DNA of 64,000 nucleotides from NCBI GenBank assembly GCA_018814305.1, contig JAHJAA010000089.1, forward strand, positions 1 through 64,000, in the 5' to 3' direction. Under the pieces are notes generated by a model, which made no database searches, was not told where the DNA came from, and worked only from the letters and a program-made list of their open reading frames with translations. The stretch is from Pseudomonadota bacterium. Its GTDB lineage: Bacteria > Desulfobacterota > Desulfobulbia > Desulfobulbales > JAGXFP01. The position numbers and the translations under genes were made by a program. Shown here piece by piece: positions 1,738 through 14,759 of the stretch (position 1 is its first letter; each line of letters begins with the position of its first letter).

Positions 1738-3942
1738 TCACTCCGGTGGCGTATAGGCCTCTCCATTCACCTTGCATAAAACATAGGCCGGGGAACGATC
1801 ATTGACGGGAACGATGAAATCCTGGCTTTGATTCTTTTCCAGCAGCATCTTCACGAATACCGAGTCCGCCATATTTTTGCTGAGCACCACCCCAAGGCCT
1901 CCGCCCTGGTGCATGGTCAGGTATAGGACATGACCGGATTTCCGTTCAGGAAAATCAAAGGTCATGGGCTTAACCCCGTTATCCATCTTGATGGCGCTGA
2001 GCCCCATCCCGACCTCACCGACGGATCCTAACCCAGTCTGGATATTAAAAGAAACCGGCCCCTGCCCACTACTGCCGGTGACCATGGTGCCCCGGCTATT
2101 GATGGCGAACCCCCCTAAGGGTATTTTCATACTCCGGGGCTCATCCCGGCTCTTGAAATCCCAGGCTCCCAGACCGTACCAGGATTGGATCAAAAAATGT
2201 TTGTAATCAAGAAACAGATAGATGGGTGGACTTTCCTCCGGAAAGAGAAACTTTAAGGTCTCTTCCACTTTTTGAGGATCATAACCGAACTCACCCGCCA
2301 AAATCATTCTGCTTTTTTCAATCCCGACCCGAAGCAGGCGTTGTAAAATCGGCATGCCCTGCTCCCAGCCCTCAGGGATCCCGGCAAAGAGTTCGTTGGC
2401 CCGAACCAGTCCCTGCTCCCCGTTCACCAACCGGAACCGAATCCAATTTGCGGCAAGCTGGAAACTATCGGTGGCCATGGGGAAGTTCTGGTAATAAAGG
2501 AGATGCGAGGGATGATACATCCCATCCCCCAAGGTCTTTCGTTGTGAATAATAGATAAGGGGATGCCCGTTGCCCCAGGAAGCCCAGATCACTGCATCTT
2601 CCGGAGTAAAGAAAGAGGCCTCCTTATACCCTTCAAAGAGAGCCGGGGAAAGAATTGGTTCCCTGGTATTAAATTTCTGGGCGGCCGGCACCATACTCCA
2701 ACCAACAAGAACAAAAAAGACGAACCCGGCGATCATCCCCACCCGACGATCCCGGCTGCAATTCCACAAGAGCACCATAATGGTGCCCAGCCCCAGCCCT
2801 AAGAGCGGCGCGGTAAATACCAAAAACCGTTGCCCCTTGAACGACAGGATACTGACCACCAGCAACGAGACCAGAAACAAGATATTTCGTCGGGCCAGAA
2901 AACCAAGACAGAGCAAGCCACCTAGCCCGGCCATCAAAACGATCAATCCTCCGGCAATATTGTCGGCAAGCTCATTCAGGAGAAGATGACGTTGCTCACC
3001 GACATACTGCTCTAAAACCGGAAAAACGGAAGTGGTTCCTCCCTTCCCCAGGACGTAAGCCAACATCCCGGCCCCCTCATTCCAGATTCTGGTTGGATTG
3101 AGGATCCTCCCCCCCTTCCAGATCACGAGAACCACCAACATCAATCCCCCGATGGCCAGAAAGGGGCGGAGAGCCTTTTTTGATTTCAGGCCGGTAAAGA
3201 GAAAAGCGACCCCCAAGGGAAAACCACTGAATACGAGGACCGGCACCGATCCCAGGTCCCACCACCAGGCATAGAGCAGGGCCGTCACACACCACCCGCC
3301 CCCATAAAGCACTTTCTCTTTGCGACTGCCGGCGGCAGCGAGTCCCATGGCCATCACAATAGAGAGGGTCGCAAAAACCACATTCAACGAATCCGTATCA
3401 CACCAGCCAACCGAACTTCTTTTCACAAAATAAGGAGAAAACACGGCAAAGAGAGCCGAACAGAGTCCCATAAAAATCGCCTGGGCCCGCTGCTGTTCCG
3501 CTGACAACTGCCAGGGCAGTCTCGCCCCACGGATCAGCAGATACCCGAGGAAAAATACCGGCAATGCTAACAATGAGCCCAACACGGAGGGAAGAACCAA
3601 GGCCACCCACTCGACCGAAGTTCCGAAAATTGTACTGAACAGGGCCAGCAGCGCGGATAAAAGCGGGACCGCCATGACCTTAGGGGTGCCATCCGGATAA
3701 TGCCGCCGGTCATCGACCTTGCGGATCACCCCTTTTTTCAAATCCGCAGCAATATCATAATAATAGTAGGAGTCAACCCCGAGACTGACCGGGATTTCAT
3801 GATTCTGGAAAAAGTACTGATCCGGGTTTTTCAGCCAATAGGCCAAACTGTCAAACCGCACCCAGAAACCCGCCAGGAGGATGCCCAGCAAGGCAAGACC
3901 GATCAGAACATTTTTTTTGGATGGCTTCGCAGATTCCAACAT
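1738..3942 (-). CDS. STT3/PglB-family oligosaccharyltransferase catalytic subunit-like membrane protein
   Basis: N-terminal VDSYYYYDIA, second acidic motif (SSVGWCDTDSLNVVF), many TM segments, and a C-terminal WASWGNGHPLIYYSQRKTLGDG that aligns with the WWDYG block. Confidence 0.8.
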   Translation of the reverse strand: MLESAKPSKKNVLIGLALLGILLAGFWVRFDSLAYWLKNPDQYFFQNHEIPVSLGVDSYYYYDIAADLKKGVIRKVDDRRHYPDGTPKVMAVPLLSALLALFSTIFGTSVEWVALVLPSVLGSLLALPVFFLGYLLIRGARLPWQLSAEQQRAQAIFMGLCSALFAVFSPYFVKRSSVGWCDTDSLNVVFATLSIVMAMGLAAAGSRKEKVLYGGGWCVTALLYAWWWDLGSVPVLVFSGFPLGVAFLFTGLKSKKALRPFLAIGGLMLVVLVIWKGGRILNPTRIWNEGAGMLAYVLGKGGTTSVFPVLEQYVGEQRHLLLNELADNIAGGLIVLMAGLGGLLCLGFLARRNILFLVSLLVVSILSFKGQRFLVFTAPLLGLGLGTIMVLLWNCSRDRRVGMIAGFVFFVLVGWSMVPAAQKFNTREPILSPALFEGYKEASFFTPEDAVIWASWGNGHPLIYYSQRKTLGDGMYHPSHLLYYQNFPMATDSFQLAANWIRFRLVNGEQGLVRANELFAGIPEGWEQGMPILQRLLRVGIEKSRMILAGEFGYDPQKVEETLKFLFPEESPPIYLFLDYKHFLIQSWYGLGAWDFKSRDEPRSMKIPLGGFAINSRGTMVTGSSGQGPVSFNIQTGLGSVGEVGMGLSAIKMDNGVKPMTFDFPERKSGHVLYLTMHQGGGLGVVLSKNMADSVFVKMLLEKNQSQDFIVPVNDRSPAYVLCKVNGEAYTPPE

Positions 3943-9303: not shown

Positions 9304-10680
9304 TTACAATCCCCGTAATCGATCGAATTCCGCTTGAAACTCCTGGGCCTTCTCGGGCTCTCCAAACTCACGATGGAGGGTCACCATCTCCTCAAGTCCC
9401 CTCAGATTGGTCGGAACCTGCTCCAGAAGCTGGCGACAGCATCGCATCGCCTCTACCGGATTCCCCTGCATCCGGTAAATCCTCGCCATACCCAGCAGGG
9501 CATAGGGATCGAAGCGGATCTGAATACTCAACAGATAGTGCTCCAAGGCCTTGTCAAATTGTGATAGATTCAAATAGGCATCACCGACCCGGGAATGAAT
9601 CACCTGATTCCGAGGTTCCTTATCCAGAATCTTGGTCCACCAACTGATCACTTCTTCGTAATTACGCATCCACCGATTACAGTCACCAAGACCATAAAGG
9701 GCAAAGGTGTTACCCGGCTCATAATGAACCGCCTTCTCATAGTAGCGGATCGCCCCAGAGTAATCCTGGCGCCGACGATAGATGTTACCGACCATAGTCA
9801 ACACCGCCACATAACTGTCATCAAGGGCCAAAAGACGTTCCAGATAAATAACGGCCCGATCGTCCTTCTCCATCTTGTAATAGAGGCTGCCGATACCCAG
9901 CAGGGCATAACGATCGTCTTCGCTGAAGGAGAGGGCCTGGAGATAGTACTCCTCGGATTCCTTGATGTTTTTAATCTTTTTATTTGAATCCCCAACCCGG
10001 GTCATAACCTGGATATCATCACGATTGCATTCCAGATAGCGCTTCCAGTAACTGATGGCCATCTCATGCTGATTCATCCCTCGATAGGAATCCCCGATGC
10101 CGCGAAGGGCAAAGACATTGAACTCATCGATGGACAGAATCTTTTCGTAATACCCGATCGCCTTACCGAATTTTTTCTGTTCGCGGTACAGGTCACCGAG
10201 GCCGACCAGAATATAGGCGTTCATGGGATCAAGATCGTAGGCCTCCATAAGGACCTTTTCCGCTTCATGAAAATTTTTGGCCCGCAGGAGCCTGTTGCCC
10301 TTCTTTGATAATTCGATGGCGTTTTCCGGGGTCTCGCCGGGTTCGGGCTCTAAACCTACCCCTTGATTTTCCCGGGCCCATTGCCAGTACTCCGGCAGCA
10401 CTTCGCTGGCCTGCACCGCCAACCATTGGGGGATTTCATAGGGATGATTTTCTTTTAACCACCGCTCCAGTTGGGGTGCCCGCTCGGCGACAAACTTAAA
10501 GGTTATCCGGAACTCATCAACGGTTTCCAGATTCCCTTCCCACAGGTAATATGACTTCACCGGGCCATGGAGTTGAGCACAGGCGGCAAGTTTCTGCTCA
10601 ACCGCTCCACGGGCCAGTTTTTCCGCCGACTTTTGATCGTTGGTCATTGTCCAACCGATATGCATCATATTTCCGCTCAT
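9304..10680 (-). CDS. CutA1-like domain fused to TPR repeats
   Basis: N-term AEKLARGAVEQKLAACAQLHGPVKSYYLWEGNLETVDEFRITFKF...ENHPYEIPQWLAV is CutA1; the rest is tandem TPRs. Start set at M in MSGNMMHIGW (the ORF extends to 10725). Confidence 0.8.
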   Translation of the reverse strand: MSGNMMHIGWTMTNDQKSAEKLARGAVEQKLAACAQLHGPVKSYYLWEGNLETVDEFRITFKFVAERAPQLERWLKENHPYEIPQWLAVQASEVLPEYWQWARENQGVGLEPEPGETPENAIELSKKGNRLLRAKNFHEAEKVLMEAYDLDPMNAYILVGLGDLYREQKKFGKAIGYYEKILSIDEFNVFALRGIGDSYRGMNQHEMAISYWKRYLECNRDDIQVMTRVGDSNKKIKNIKESEEYYLQALSFSEDDRYALLGIGSLYYKMEKDDRAVIYLERLLALDDSYVAVLTMVGNIYRRRQDYSGAIRYYEKAVHYEPGNTFALYGLGDCNRWMRNYEEVISWWTKILDKEPRNQVIHSRVGDAYLNLSQFDKALEHYLLSIQIRFDPYALLGMARIYRMQGNPVEAMRCCRQLLEQVPTNLRGLEEMVTLHREFGEPEKAQEFQAEFDRLRGL

Positions 10681-10908
10681 TTTGATCAATTTCATCCTTA
10701 ACAGAGTAATATTAATTTTTATCAATTATAAAAATGCGTTTAATTTACCACATGGATGATACAAAGTCTTGCAAATGATGCCTCCCTGTGAGCCGCTTCA
10801 GGGAAATGCCGGTCTCGACCAAGACCGCTGGCGCGAACTACGAATTTCAGGGTATAGTGTGAGCTGACATCACCTGATCTCCATACTCCCATTGCGAAGC
10901 GAGACGTT

Positions 10909-12693
10909 TTGAAACGATTGATCCCCTCCCGGGAACAGATACGCCGGGCCAAAGGCGCCCTCAGTCTTGTCCTGCCCTCATACCGGAAGTACCGGTTACG
11001 AATCATGGTCGGATTCCTGGCCCTGCTGGCCGTTGATCTTCTTCAGGTCTTGATCCCCCGAATCATCAAAGGAGGGGTCGACGACCTCCAGCAAGGGATC
11101 GCAACGAACACGACCCTCCTGCGCCAGGGCGGCATGATCATCGGGCTGGCCCTGGCCATTGCCCTCTTTCGCTTCAGTTGGCGTCAGCTCATCCTCGGTT
11201 TCTCCAGAAAACTCGAACGGGATATCAGAAACCGTTTACTGGACCAACTGATGGCCCTGGATCGTACCTTTTTCAACCACCACCCCACCGGTGAGATCAT
11301 GGCCCTGTCCAGTAACGATCTCTCCGCCGTGCAGATGGCAGCCGGGATCGGCCTGGTCTCCTTTGTTGATGCCATCTTCATGACCGCAGCGGCCCTCATC
11401 TGCATGGTCTATATTCATCCTGCCCTCACCGCCATCGCCCTCTCACCCATGCCGATTCTGGCCCTGCTGACCGGGCTGCTGTCTGCGGTGCTCCATCAAC
11501 GGTTCACCCTGGTTCAGGAACAATTTGGCCGGATCACCGAGATGAGCCGATCCACCCTCTCTTCCATCCGGTTGATCAAGGCCTATACCCAGGAAGAAGA
11601 TCAGATCGGTCGCCTGGAGCAACTGGGCCAGGCCTACATCCAGGACAATCTACGTCTGGCCATGGTCCAGGGTGGCCTCTGGCCCTTCTCCACCCTGATC
11701 GCCAGCAGCAGTCTCCTGCTGGTGGTTTTCTTTGGTGGCCGCCTGACCATCACCGGGGCCATCACCATCGGTGACTTTGTCGCCTTCATGACCTACCTCG
11801 CCCTGATGACCTGGCCGATGATGGCCGTGGGCTGGGTGGCCAATCTGTTTCAGCGGGGCATCACCGCCCTGGACCGCATCGACCGAGTCATCAAGGCCGA
11901 GGCCGCGATCCGGGATCCCATTAGTTCCAAGCCCATACCTCAGGCCAATCTCAAAGTCGAATGCCGGGACCTCACCTTTCGCTACGGTCCAAATCTGCCG
12001 CCGATTCTTCAGCGGATGCAACTGTCCATCGGCCCCGGATTAACCGGGATTGTCGGCCGCACCGGCTCGGGAAAGACCACCCTGTGCCGGTTGCTGGCCA
12101 GGATCTATCCGGTTGCCGACCACAGTATCTACTGGAGTGGAATCGACTGCAACCAACTCTCCTTGGCAACGGTTCGCAGCCACCTCGCCTATGTCCCCCA
12201 GAGCGTGATCCTGTTTTCCGATACCATTGAAGCCAATATCCGCTTCGGCCGCCCCGAGGCCTCCCCTGAAGAGGTTGAAAATGCTGCCCGAGCCGCCGCC
12301 ATCCATGAAGAGATCCTCTCTTTTCCCCAGGGATATGCCTCCCGGGTCGGAGAAAAGGGGGTCCTCCTTTCCGGTGGCCAGCGGCAACGAATCGCCCTGG
12401 CCCGTGCCCTGCTTATGGATCGACCGGTGGTGATCATCGATGACGGCCTGTCGGCGGTGGACACCGACACCGAACATCGGATCATCGCCAATTACGGAAC
12501 CTGGTTGCCAGGCAGAATCTGCATCATCGTCTCCCACCGGGTGATCCCGGTAATGGGGGCCGATCAAATCATCGTTCTCGACCAGGGTCGCATCGCCGCC
12601 CAGGGCACCCATCAGGAACTGCTCGCTGCCAATGATTATTACCGAACCATCGTTCACCATCAGGTCACCCCACGCGAAGGGGGGAAAACCTGA
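10909..12693 (+). CDS. ABC transporter, fused permease/ATPase (half of a heterodimeric MdlA/MdlB-like exporter)
   Basis: Walker A GRTGSGKTT, signature LSGGQRQRIALARAL, N-terminal TM domain; TTG start. Confidence 0.9.
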   Translation: MKRLIPSREQIRRAKGALSLVLPSYRKYRLRIMVGFLALLAVDLLQVLIPRIIKGGVDDLQQGIATNTTLLRQGGMIIGLALAIALFRFSWRQLILGFSRKLERDIRNRLLDQLMALDRTFFNHHPTGEIMALSSNDLSAVQMAAGIGLVSFVDAIFMTAAALICMVYIHPALTAIALSPMPILALLTGLLSAVLHQRFTLVQEQFGRITEMSRSTLSSIRLIKAYTQEEDQIGRLEQLGQAYIQDNLRLAMVQGGLWPFSTLIASSSLLLVVFFGGRLTITGAITIGDFVAFMTYLALMTWPMMAVGWVANLFQRGITALDRIDRVIKAEAAIRDPISSKPIPQANLKVECRDLTFRYGPNLPPILQRMQLSIGPGLTGIVGRTGSGKTTLCRLLARIYPVADHSIYWSGIDCNQLSLATVRSHLAYVPQSVILFSDTIEANIRFGRPEASPEEVENAARAAAIHEEILSFPQGYASRVGEKGVLLSGGQRQRIALARALLMDRPVVIIDDGLSAVDTDTEHRIIANYGTWLPGRICIIVSHRVIPVMGADQIIVLDQGRIAAQGTHQELLAANDYYRTIVHHQVTPREGGKT

Positions 12694-14525
12694 TGCACCA
12701 TGGATTCGGCTACTTTGAAGAAGACCGGCTCAAAAAATCGGGGGACTTGACTCTCTGGCGGCGGATCCTGACCTATATCGGTCCGCACTGGCGGGAGGTG
12801 GCGGGCGCCATCATTTTTTCCCTGATCATCACCGGCTGCAGCCTGGCCTTGCCTCATCTGGTCCGCTTGGCAGTGGATGACTTTATCATCAATCCCGAAC
12901 TGACCAAACCGGTTCGGCTGGCTGGCGTCAGTCACCTGGCCATCATTTTCCTGATCCTGGTGGCCGGAGGGTTCCTGGCCAACTTCTGTCAGGTGGTCAT
13001 CCTCGAATGGACCGGTCAACGGGTCATGCATCGGATGCGCCAGGACCTGTTCCGCCACATGCTCTCCCTGGATAGCCGTTTTTTCAATACCAACCCGGTG
13101 GGAAAACTGGTTACCCGACTGACCAACGACATTCAGAATATGCACGAGATGTTCACCTCGATTATTGTCACCCTCTGCAACGATCTGGTCCGGGTGGTGG
13201 TGATCTTGATCGTGCTCGCCCTGATGAACTGGCGCCTGGCCCTGCTCATGCTCCTTTTGGTGCCGGTAATAGTTCTCAACACCCTGCTGTTCAGCCGCCT
13301 GGCCCGGCTGGCCTTCAGAGAGATCCGAACCCAGCTGGCCCGCTTGAATTCTTTTCTCCAGGAGGCCTTGAGCGGACTCAGCGTAATCCAGACCTGCAAC
13401 CGCGAAGCCGATACCCGGCAGCGCTTTGCCGACCTTAACCAGGCCTACACCGAACGAACCCTCTACCAAATCAAGATCTTCGGGATTTTCATGCCCATGC
13501 TCGAGCTCTTGTCCGCAACCGCCATCGCCTTGATCATCTGGTACGGGGGGGGCCAGATTATCCAGGGGCAGATGACCCTGGGGGTGCTGATCGCCTTTCT
13601 CTCGTACATGCGGCTCTTTTTCCAGCCGTTACGGGAGCTGTCTCAAAAATACTCCATTGTCCAATCCTCTCTGGCTTCGGCAGAGCGAATTTTCCAGCTC
13701 ATCGATACCCAGAACTCCCTACCCCGGTCCCCTGCCCCGATTTCCGCCGCCCGGCTGGCCGGGCGGATCGAATTCAGAAATGTTACCTTCGGCTACCAAC
13801 CGGACCATCCCGTGATTAAAGATCTCGATTTCCAGGTGGCGCCGGGGGAAACCGTGGCCATCGTCGGAGCCACCGGTGCCGGCAAATCAACAATCATCAA
13901 CCTTCTGGAACGCTTTTATGATCCGGATCAGGGCATGGTTCTGGTGGACGGGGTCGACCTGCGCCGTTATCGCCTCAAAACCATCCGGGACCAGATGGGC
14001 CTGGTCATGCAGGATGTGATGATCCTGCCCGATACCCTCCGTAAGAATATCTGCCTGGACCGTGATCTCTCCGAGGTGACCTTACGGGAAATCATCAAGG
14101 CCGCCCAGCTCGAACGCTTTGTCAACTCCCTGGAAGCCGGAGTCCACACCCGACTGGGTGACGGCGGCAATGAACTTTCCGCCGGCCAGCGGCAGTTGCT
14201 CTCCCTGGCCCGGGTTCTGGCCCGAAATCCCCGGATCCTGATCCTGGACGAAGCGACCTCAAATATCGATACCGAGACCGAAATGCTCATCGAAAAGGCC
14301 ATGGCCGCAACCCTGGCAAATCGTACCAGTGTGGTCATTGCCCACCGCCTCTCGACCATCCGGCGGGCCGATCGCATTCTGGTCATGGATCAGGGAAGGA
14401 TCGTGGAGGTCGGTGACCACCAAAGTCTGCTGGCGGGGAACGGAATCTATCACCATCTCCAGATGCTCAATCACGAGATCCATTTGACAGGGCTCGGCGA
14501 ACATAATACAAATGAAGAAACGTAA
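12693..14525 (+). CDS. ABC transporter, fused permease/ATPase (second half)
   Basis: Walker A GATGAGKST, LSAGQRQLLSLARVL, DEATSNID. Overlaps the previous CDS at ATGA. The TAA stop lies inside an inverted-repeat element. Confidence 0.9.
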   Translation: MHHGFGYFEEDRLKKSGDLTLWRRILTYIGPHWREVAGAIIFSLIITGCSLALPHLVRLAVDDFIINPELTKPVRLAGVSHLAIIFLILVAGGFLANFCQVVILEWTGQRVMHRMRQDLFRHMLSLDSRFFNTNPVGKLVTRLTNDIQNMHEMFTSIIVTLCNDLVRVVVILIVLALMNWRLALLMLLLVPVIVLNTLLFSRLARLAFREIRTQLARLNSFLQEALSGLSVIQTCNREADTRQRFADLNQAYTERTLYQIKIFGIFMPMLELLSATAIALIIWYGGGQIIQGQMTLGVLIAFLSYMRLFFQPLRELSQKYSIVQSSLASAERIFQLIDTQNSLPRSPAPISAARLAGRIEFRNVTFGYQPDHPVIKDLDFQVAPGETVAIVGATGAGKSTIINLLERFYDPDQGMVLVDGVDLRRYRLKTIRDQMGLVMQDVMILPDTLRKNICLDRDLSEVTLREIIKAAQLERFVNSLEAGVHTRLGDGGNELSAGQRQLLSLARVLARNPRILILDEATSNIDTETEMLIEKAMAATLANRTSVVIAHRLSTIRRADRILVMDQGRIVEVGDHQSLLAGNGIYHHLQMLNHEIHLTGLGEHNTNEET

Positions 14526-14671
14526 CTATTCAGCAGCACCACATCTTGCGGCGATCGGGCCGGCTCACGTAGGCGGGCTACGCATCGCCAGCCCGCTTAC
14601 CGCAAGCTGCGGCACTGCTGAATAGTTACACCAGATATTTGCTCCTTTTTCGGCAGGAGCTGGTTAGTTAC
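14522..14671. mobile_element. MITE/REP-like non-autonomous palindromic element, ~150 bp
   Basis: Terminal GTAACTA...TAGTTAC; inner imperfect hairpin 14522-14629 (GTAACTATTCAGCAG...CTGCTGAATAGTTAC); flanked by direct repeats GAAGAAAC at 14514-14521 and 14672-14679. Confidence 0.7.
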
Positions 14672-14759
14672 GAAGAAACGATAAATGAAATGCAGGACTT
14701 TGGGGATGAGCACTGATTCCCCTTTTTCCCGTAAAAAAGACCAAACCAAGGAGAGAACC

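What the first reader, a model, noticed from the sequence alone, without database searches (positions are those of the whole stretch)
14514..14679. MITE-like palindromic element with 8-bp target-site duplication that supplies a new stop codon to an ABC exporter
A 150-bp segment with ends GTAACTA...TAGTTAC is flanked by exact direct repeats GAAGAAAC (14514-14521 and 14672-14679). The ABC transporter's TAA stop lies in the element's first 4 nt. Removing the element plus one repeat extends the reading frame NTNEET into INEMQDFGDEH-stop. So the element appears to have inserted into the 3' end of the gene and truncated it by ~11 codons. Inside is a 108-bp imperfect hairpin (GTAACTATTCAGCAG...CTGCTGAATAGTTAC) and a second small hairpin sharing the same tip.
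Basis: partly seen in the sequence, partly recalled or inferred. Interest (0 to 1): 0.72.

Follow-up and report, generated by a model that had tools for sequence, protein, structure and literature searches.

The report
IS66-type MITE behind an ABC exporter
A 150-base non-coding jumping element, one of a family scattered through Desulfobulbales and related bacteria and apparently moved by IS66-type transposases, landed at the very end of an ABC exporter gene and now provides its stop codon; it is a solid but mostly ordinary find, the unusual part being a long hairpin whose base pairing has been preserved while its letters changed.

Summary
In detail: a 150-bp palindromic element (14522-14671) sits between exact 8-bp repeats (GAAGAAAC), and its bases 2-4 are the TAA stop of the ABC exporter ORF (12693-14525). 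It is a genuine MITE. The host genome holds eight copies, three with exact 8-bp duplications. In the same order 30 of 58 genomes have relatives. In 62 full-length relatives chosen without looking at duplications, 27 have an exact 8-bp duplication and 42 have at least 7/8, against 0-1 and 0-3 at shifted offsets. The mobilising family is identified: 15 intact IS66-family, ISBst12-type insertion sequences in the order have the same termini (GTAACTAYTCAGC) and exact 8-bp duplications; none is detectable in the host genome, so the copies there look stranded. Insertions are AT-targeted and enriched at gene 3' ends. The 11-codon truncation is arithmetically correct but unproven for this gene, because orthologous C-termini are not conserved; at other sites the acquired stop costs 0-1 codon. 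New member of a known kind.

The parts
14514..14521 (.). left copy of the 8-bp target-site duplication GAAGAAAC
   Evidence: (8/8)
14522..14671 (+). MITE, full transposable unit, 150 bp, non-coding
   Evidence: unit length 150-159 bp in 65 of 83 related insertions
14522..14534 (+). left terminal inverted repeat GTAACTATTCAGC
   Evidence: same termini on IS66-family elements
14522..14629 (+). 108-bp imperfect palindrome with compensatory changes among relatives
14617..14629 (-). internal inverted copy of the terminus (GCTGAATAGTTAC), end of the palindrome but not of the unit in this copy
14641..14660 (+). small hairpin GCTCC..GGAGC in the 42-bp right arm
14659..14671 (-). right terminal inverted repeat (GCTGGTTAGTTAC, drifted)
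14672..14679 (.). right copy of the 8-bp target-site duplication GAAGAAAC
14523..14525 (+). TAA stop codon of the ABC exporter ORF, supplied by the element
12693..14525 (+). second half-transporter of an ABC exporter pair (ABC_membrane + ABC_tran)
   Evidence: MsbA-like but below all NCBIfam cut-offs shown
14681..14716 (+). inferred former 3' end of the ABC ORF (INEMQDFGDEH-stop), now untranslated in that frame
   Evidence: inference

Best explanation
The segment is a non-autonomous miniature inverted-repeat transposable element whose ends are recognised by IS66-family (ISBst12-type, single-ORF) transposases. Such a transposase, supplied from elsewhere, inserted it into an AT-rich 8-mer (GAAGAAAC) at the 3' end of the ABC exporter gene and duplicated those 8 bp (shown by anatomy, inferred as an event). 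Its first bases GTAA put a TAA in frame, so the exporter now ends inside the element, probably 11 codons earlier than before, in a part of the protein that relatives do not conserve, so the insertion is probably nearly neutral. The host genome has no detectable IS66 transposase and its other copies are 83-91% identical to this one, so the family is probably immobile there at present. The internal palindrome is kept paired by compensatory change; whether that serves transposition (structured or cruciform DNA), tolerance next to genes (a 3' hairpin in the mRNA), or reflects hairpin-templated repair is not decided here.
For: Eight copies in the host genome; exact TSDs at three (GAAGAAAC, AGATTTTG, GATTTTTT) and 7/8 at one. 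83 distinct related insertions with TSD at least 7/8, 56 exact; TSD G+C 30% against 51% in flanks. Unconditioned test: 62 full-length relatives, 27 exact TSDs at offset 0 against 0-1 at offsets of 1 to 3, and identity falls to chance at position 9. An IS66-family transposase (NF033517 289.7 bits against cut-off 180; PF03050) lies in a 1729-bp element with termini GTAACTATCCAGC, exact TSD GAATATTT, in a genome that also has the MITE; a MITE there shares 19 terminal bases GTAACTATCCAGCTTGCGC with it (L119 and L079). 15 intact IS66-type elements in the order all have GTAACTAYTCA-like termini and 8/8 TSDs. ISDge4, an ISBst12-group element seen to transpose, has termini GTGACTACTCAGCA / GTAACTGCTCAGCA and an 8-bp duplication (PMC12898284). 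A relative's copy is absent at the syntenic intergenic site of a congener.
Against: No IS66 transposase in the host assembly (PF03050; protein search), though the assembly is in 92 contigs and 96.7% complete. No genome lacking this very insertion could be found; orthologous C-termini differ. Transposition by an IS66 transposase was not assayed. The left flank at the sister-species empty site is too diverged to align base by base.
Confidence: 0.93

Rival explanations
1. A functional structured element (mRNA 3' hairpin, processing or termination signal, or small RNA) kept at gene ends by selection, with mobility only as its origin.
For: Compensatory changes in 25 of 41 pairs, 97 cells against 35 in shuffles, and against 13-25 in slid controls; 26% of insertions lie within 10 bp of a gene 3' end against 10% of matched positions; in the host genome three copies carry the upstream ORF's stop and three more lie 2-12 bp after one.
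Against: Copies also lie between divergent genes; no Rfam family apart from a sub-threshold plant miRNA hit; no terminator-like U run after the long hairpin; 3'-end enrichment is what survival of harmless insertions alone would give; pairing can also be kept by hairpin-templated repair or conversion.
Confidence: 0.15
2. A REP/BIME-type palindrome moved by a RAYT (IS200-like HUH) transposase.
For: Palindromic, intergenic and abundant in some genomes (more than 40 of the roughly 107-bp cores listed in one complete genome).
Against: Exact 8-bp target duplications and GTAAC termini are DDE-type hallmarks that REPs do not have (established knowledge); unit size 150-159 bp; a matching IS66 autonomous partner exists.
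Confidence: 0.02
3. The stop codon and the palindrome are ancestral and the 8-bp repeats are chance.
For: Only one allele of this locus is available.
Against: Repeats at the predicted offset are found in most related copies and not at other offsets; the element is multicopy.
Confidence: 0.01

Closest known systems
IS66 family, ISBst12 group (for example ISDge4; PMC12898284)
   Same: Termini GTAACT..CAGC, 8-bp target duplication; autonomous single-ORF relatives of about 1.6-1.7 kb occur in the same order.
   Different: This element has no transposase gene, is 150 bp long, and carries an internal inverted copy of the terminus and a long palindrome.
Bacterial MITEs in general (review PMC10969869), e.g. 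Chunjie of Geobacter uraniireducens (178-235 bp, TIRs and direct repeats, mostly intergenic)
   Same: Small, non-coding, multicopy, terminal inverted repeats, target duplications, strong hairpin, mostly intergenic.
   Different: Chunjie's sequence could not be compared here (original paper not held); its length differs. No IS66-derived MITE turned up in the library searches.
MITEPsy1 (PMC3189936) and MITECca01 (PMC9769881)
   Same: Non-autonomous derivatives defined by termini shared with an IS.
   Different: Parents are assigned to IS5 (tentatively; 4-bp duplication) and IS982, not IS66; termini differ.

Membership tests
bacterial MITE | short, no transposase gene | tested here: met
   150 bp; no coding gene in it
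bacterial MITE | terminal inverted repeats | tested here: met
   GTAACTA...TAGTTAC outer ends; fuller in relatives (13 of 13 in L097)
bacterial MITE | target-site duplication | tested here: met
   8/8 here; 27 of 62 exact in an unconditioned set
bacterial MITE | multiple dispersed copies | tested here: met
   8 in the host genome; 30 of 58 relatives
IS66-derived (ISBst12-type) MITE | termini and duplication length equal to those of an autonomous IS66-family element | tested here: met
   15 intact elements with GTAACTAYTCA-type termini and exact 8-bp duplications; 19 shared terminal bases in one genome
IS66-derived (ISBst12-type) MITE | autonomous partner in the same genome (needed for present mobility, not for origin) | tested here: not met
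   no PF03050 match in the host genome; present in G027 alongside MITEs
IS66-derived (ISBst12-type) MITE | mobilised by that transposase | not testable with these tools
   needs a transposition assay
REP/BIME with RAYT | no target-site duplication | tested here: not met
   8-bp duplications

The most novel reading that the evidence does not exclude
A conserved three-terminus MITE architecture (outer end, a roughly 108-bp covarying palindrome closed by an internal end, and a fixed 42-48-bp arm to the true outer end) kept across many families because the palindrome does something: it is bound or folded during IS66 transposition, or acts as a 3'-end RNA hairpin that makes insertions next to stop codons tolerable or useful, so that host and element share an interest in it.
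Probability: 0.2. Interest if true: 0.55.

Novelty: new member of a known kind. Interest (0 to 1): 0.36.

Why it matters
It links a large, apparently undescribed family of small palindromic repeats in sulfate-reducing bacteria and their relatives to a definite transposase family (IS66, ISBst12 group), whose transposition is little studied. The covarying palindrome with an internal copy of the terminus gives a testable handle on what IS66-type transposases recognise, and the bias towards gene 3' ends shows how such elements supply stop codons and 3'-UTR hairpins at little cost.

Tried and rejected
Plasmid and phage collections: no match. Rfam: only a sub-threshold plant miRNA match (28.4 against a gathering score of 77.5), rejected as a generic long-hairpin hit. 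Literature: no paper holds GTAACTATTCAGC, none pairs Desulfobulbaceae or Desulfurivibrio with MITEs in the terms tried, no IS66-derived MITE found. Empty-site search for the window's own insertion: no same-genus genome; orthologous tails not comparable. Empty-site attempt with a G008 insertion failed because the right flank is not conserved; G003 against G004 gave only the left flank. The hypothesis that the element usually truncates genes was dropped: at five other sites the empty-site reading changes the protein by 0-1 residue. That the 150-bp form is a private composite of a 108-bp element was dropped: 150-159 bp is the usual unit across genera.

Full report
Observation. The segment is as described: GAAGAAAC at 14514-14521 and 14672-14679 bracket a 150-bp element, 14522-14671. 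The ABC exporter ORF 12693-14525 (ABC_membrane and ABC_tran) takes its TAA from nt 2-4 of the element. Reading the target site without the element gives 11 more codons, INEMQDFGDEH. The fold is far stronger than in shuffles (z -5.6 as DNA; z -7.5 as RNA).

Copies in the host genome. A search of the host assembly (4.15 Mb, 92 contigs) finds eight near-full copies, 83-100% identical. Alignment and end-finding give exact 8-bp duplications at three (GAAGAAAC, AGATTTTG, GATTTTTT) and 7/8 at a fourth (TTTTTTAC/TTTTTTCC); the others are decayed. In rough ORF calls three copies (L001, L003, L005) carry the stop of the upstream ORF and three more (L002, L004, L008) start 2-12 bp after a stop.

Copies elsewhere. 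30 of 58 relatives in the same order have matches; two congeneric genomes, G008 and G031, have around 200 first-look candidates each, mostly roughly 107-bp cores. Most records are Desulfobulbaceae, Desulfurivibrio, Desulfocapsa, Desulfobia and other Deltaproteobacteria, so the host order is probably Desulfobulbales (inference). Hits in Methylococcaceae, Prevotella, KSB1, Geobacter and a Woesearchaeota bin mostly have unrelated interiors with the same ends, i.e. other MITEs of the same transposase type; the Woesearchaeota hit does resemble the core and may be a binning error.

Target duplications. Among 83 distinct insertions with TSD at least 7/8, 56 are exact and 65 have a unit of 150-159 bp; TSD G+C is 30% against 51% in flanks. 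As that set was chosen by its TSD, a second set was chosen only by palindrome plus outer terminus: 27 of 62 exact and 42 at least 7/8 at offset 0, against 0-1 exact and 0-3 at least 7/8 at offsets of 1-3; identity is 47-54 of 62 at positions 1-8 and falls to chance at position 9.

Partner. The host has no IS66 transposase (PF03050) match. In G027, which has MITEs, a PF03050 ORF lies in a 1729-bp element with termini GTAACTATCCAGC and exact TSD GAATATTT; NCBIfam names it IS66 family transposase above cut-off. That element and a G027 MITE share their first 19 bases, GTAACTATCCAGCTTGCGC. A search of 243 genomes of the order gave loci in which 15 intact elements of 1.6-2.4 kb have GTAACTAYTCA-type or GTAACTGTTCA-type ends and exact 8-bp duplications. 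ISDge4 of Deinococcus geothermalis, an ISBst12-group single-ORF IS66 element seen to transpose, has ends GTGACTACTCAGCA/GTAACTGCTCAGCA and an 8-bp repeat (PMC12898284). I therefore assign the MITE to ISBst12-type IS66 transposases.

Mobility in relatives. The G023 copy in L097 (TSD TTTTTTTC) is missing at the syntenic place in its congener G053: the right flank runs on without it to the shared downstream gene. The left flank beside the junction is too diverged to align, so this is an element-free allele, not a base-exact empty site.

Anatomy. In 40 full-length relatives the palindrome is 105-112 bp and the arm 42-48 bp (this copy 108 + 42). The palindrome ends in an inverted copy of the terminus, so most units carry three termini. 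Core mean pairwise identity is 71%; the arm keeps its length and terminus but, by eye, little else. On a 20-sequence alignment with the window's own fold as structure, 25 of 41 pairs have changes on both sides; 97 such cells against 35 in shuffles, covariation score 0.311 against 0.130, and slid structures score 0.036-0.085. Core-only copies (103-113 bp) with exact duplications also exist (L178, L094), so the internal terminus can act as an end.

Position. With genes called on the site read without the element, 22 of 85 insertions lie within 10 bp of a gene 3' end against 10% of AT-matched near-intergenic positions (Fisher p about 4e-5), and there is no such excess at 5' ends. ORF calls are crude and control points not independent, so this is suggestive. 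Survival of harmless insertions explains it without a special target rule. In G006, another family, the orthologous ABC gene ends in an independent 60-bp element with the same ends and exact TSD AAAGCTCC; there the stop costs no residue. At four further sites with the stop at the element's edge the cost is 0-1 residue. The window copy, at 11 inferred codons, is the largest of those examined.

Verdict. A well-supported new MITE family of a known kind, with its transposase family identified. The covarying palindrome with an internal terminus is the part worth a specialist's time.

Noticed in passing
L060 (G006) 3340-3415: The orthologous ABC exporter gene of another family carries an independent 60-bp MITE with the same ends and exact TSD AAAGCTCC, again supplying the stop codon.
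   Followed up: yes
L083-L096 and (G008, G031): Two congeneric genomes, one a single 3.1-Mb contig, carry dozens to perhaps 200 copies of roughly 107-bp core-only palindromes, most listed ones 82-96% identical to the query copy; a large expansion whose transposase was not identified.
   Followed up: partly
L188, L241, L244 (Methylococcaceae, Methylumidiphilus); L184 (Prevotella); L228 (KSB1); L247: MITEs of 104-113 bp with the same GTAAC..CAGC ends and 7-8/8 duplications but unrelated interiors, suggesting IS66-type MITEs are widespread and built repeatedly.
   Followed up: partly
L242 (Woesearchaeota bin, 4-kb contig): A copy resembling the Desulfurivibrio core in a contig labelled as an archaeon; binning error or horizontal transfer.
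   Followed up: no
window 9304-10725, minus strand: ORF joining a CutA1 divalent-ion-tolerance domain to a long TPR array, an unusual fusion.
   Followed up: no
L003 1501-1740: A host-genome copy followed about 70 bp on by a further sequence ending in GGGATAGTTAC, possibly a nested or extended unit of about 228 bp.
   Followed up: no
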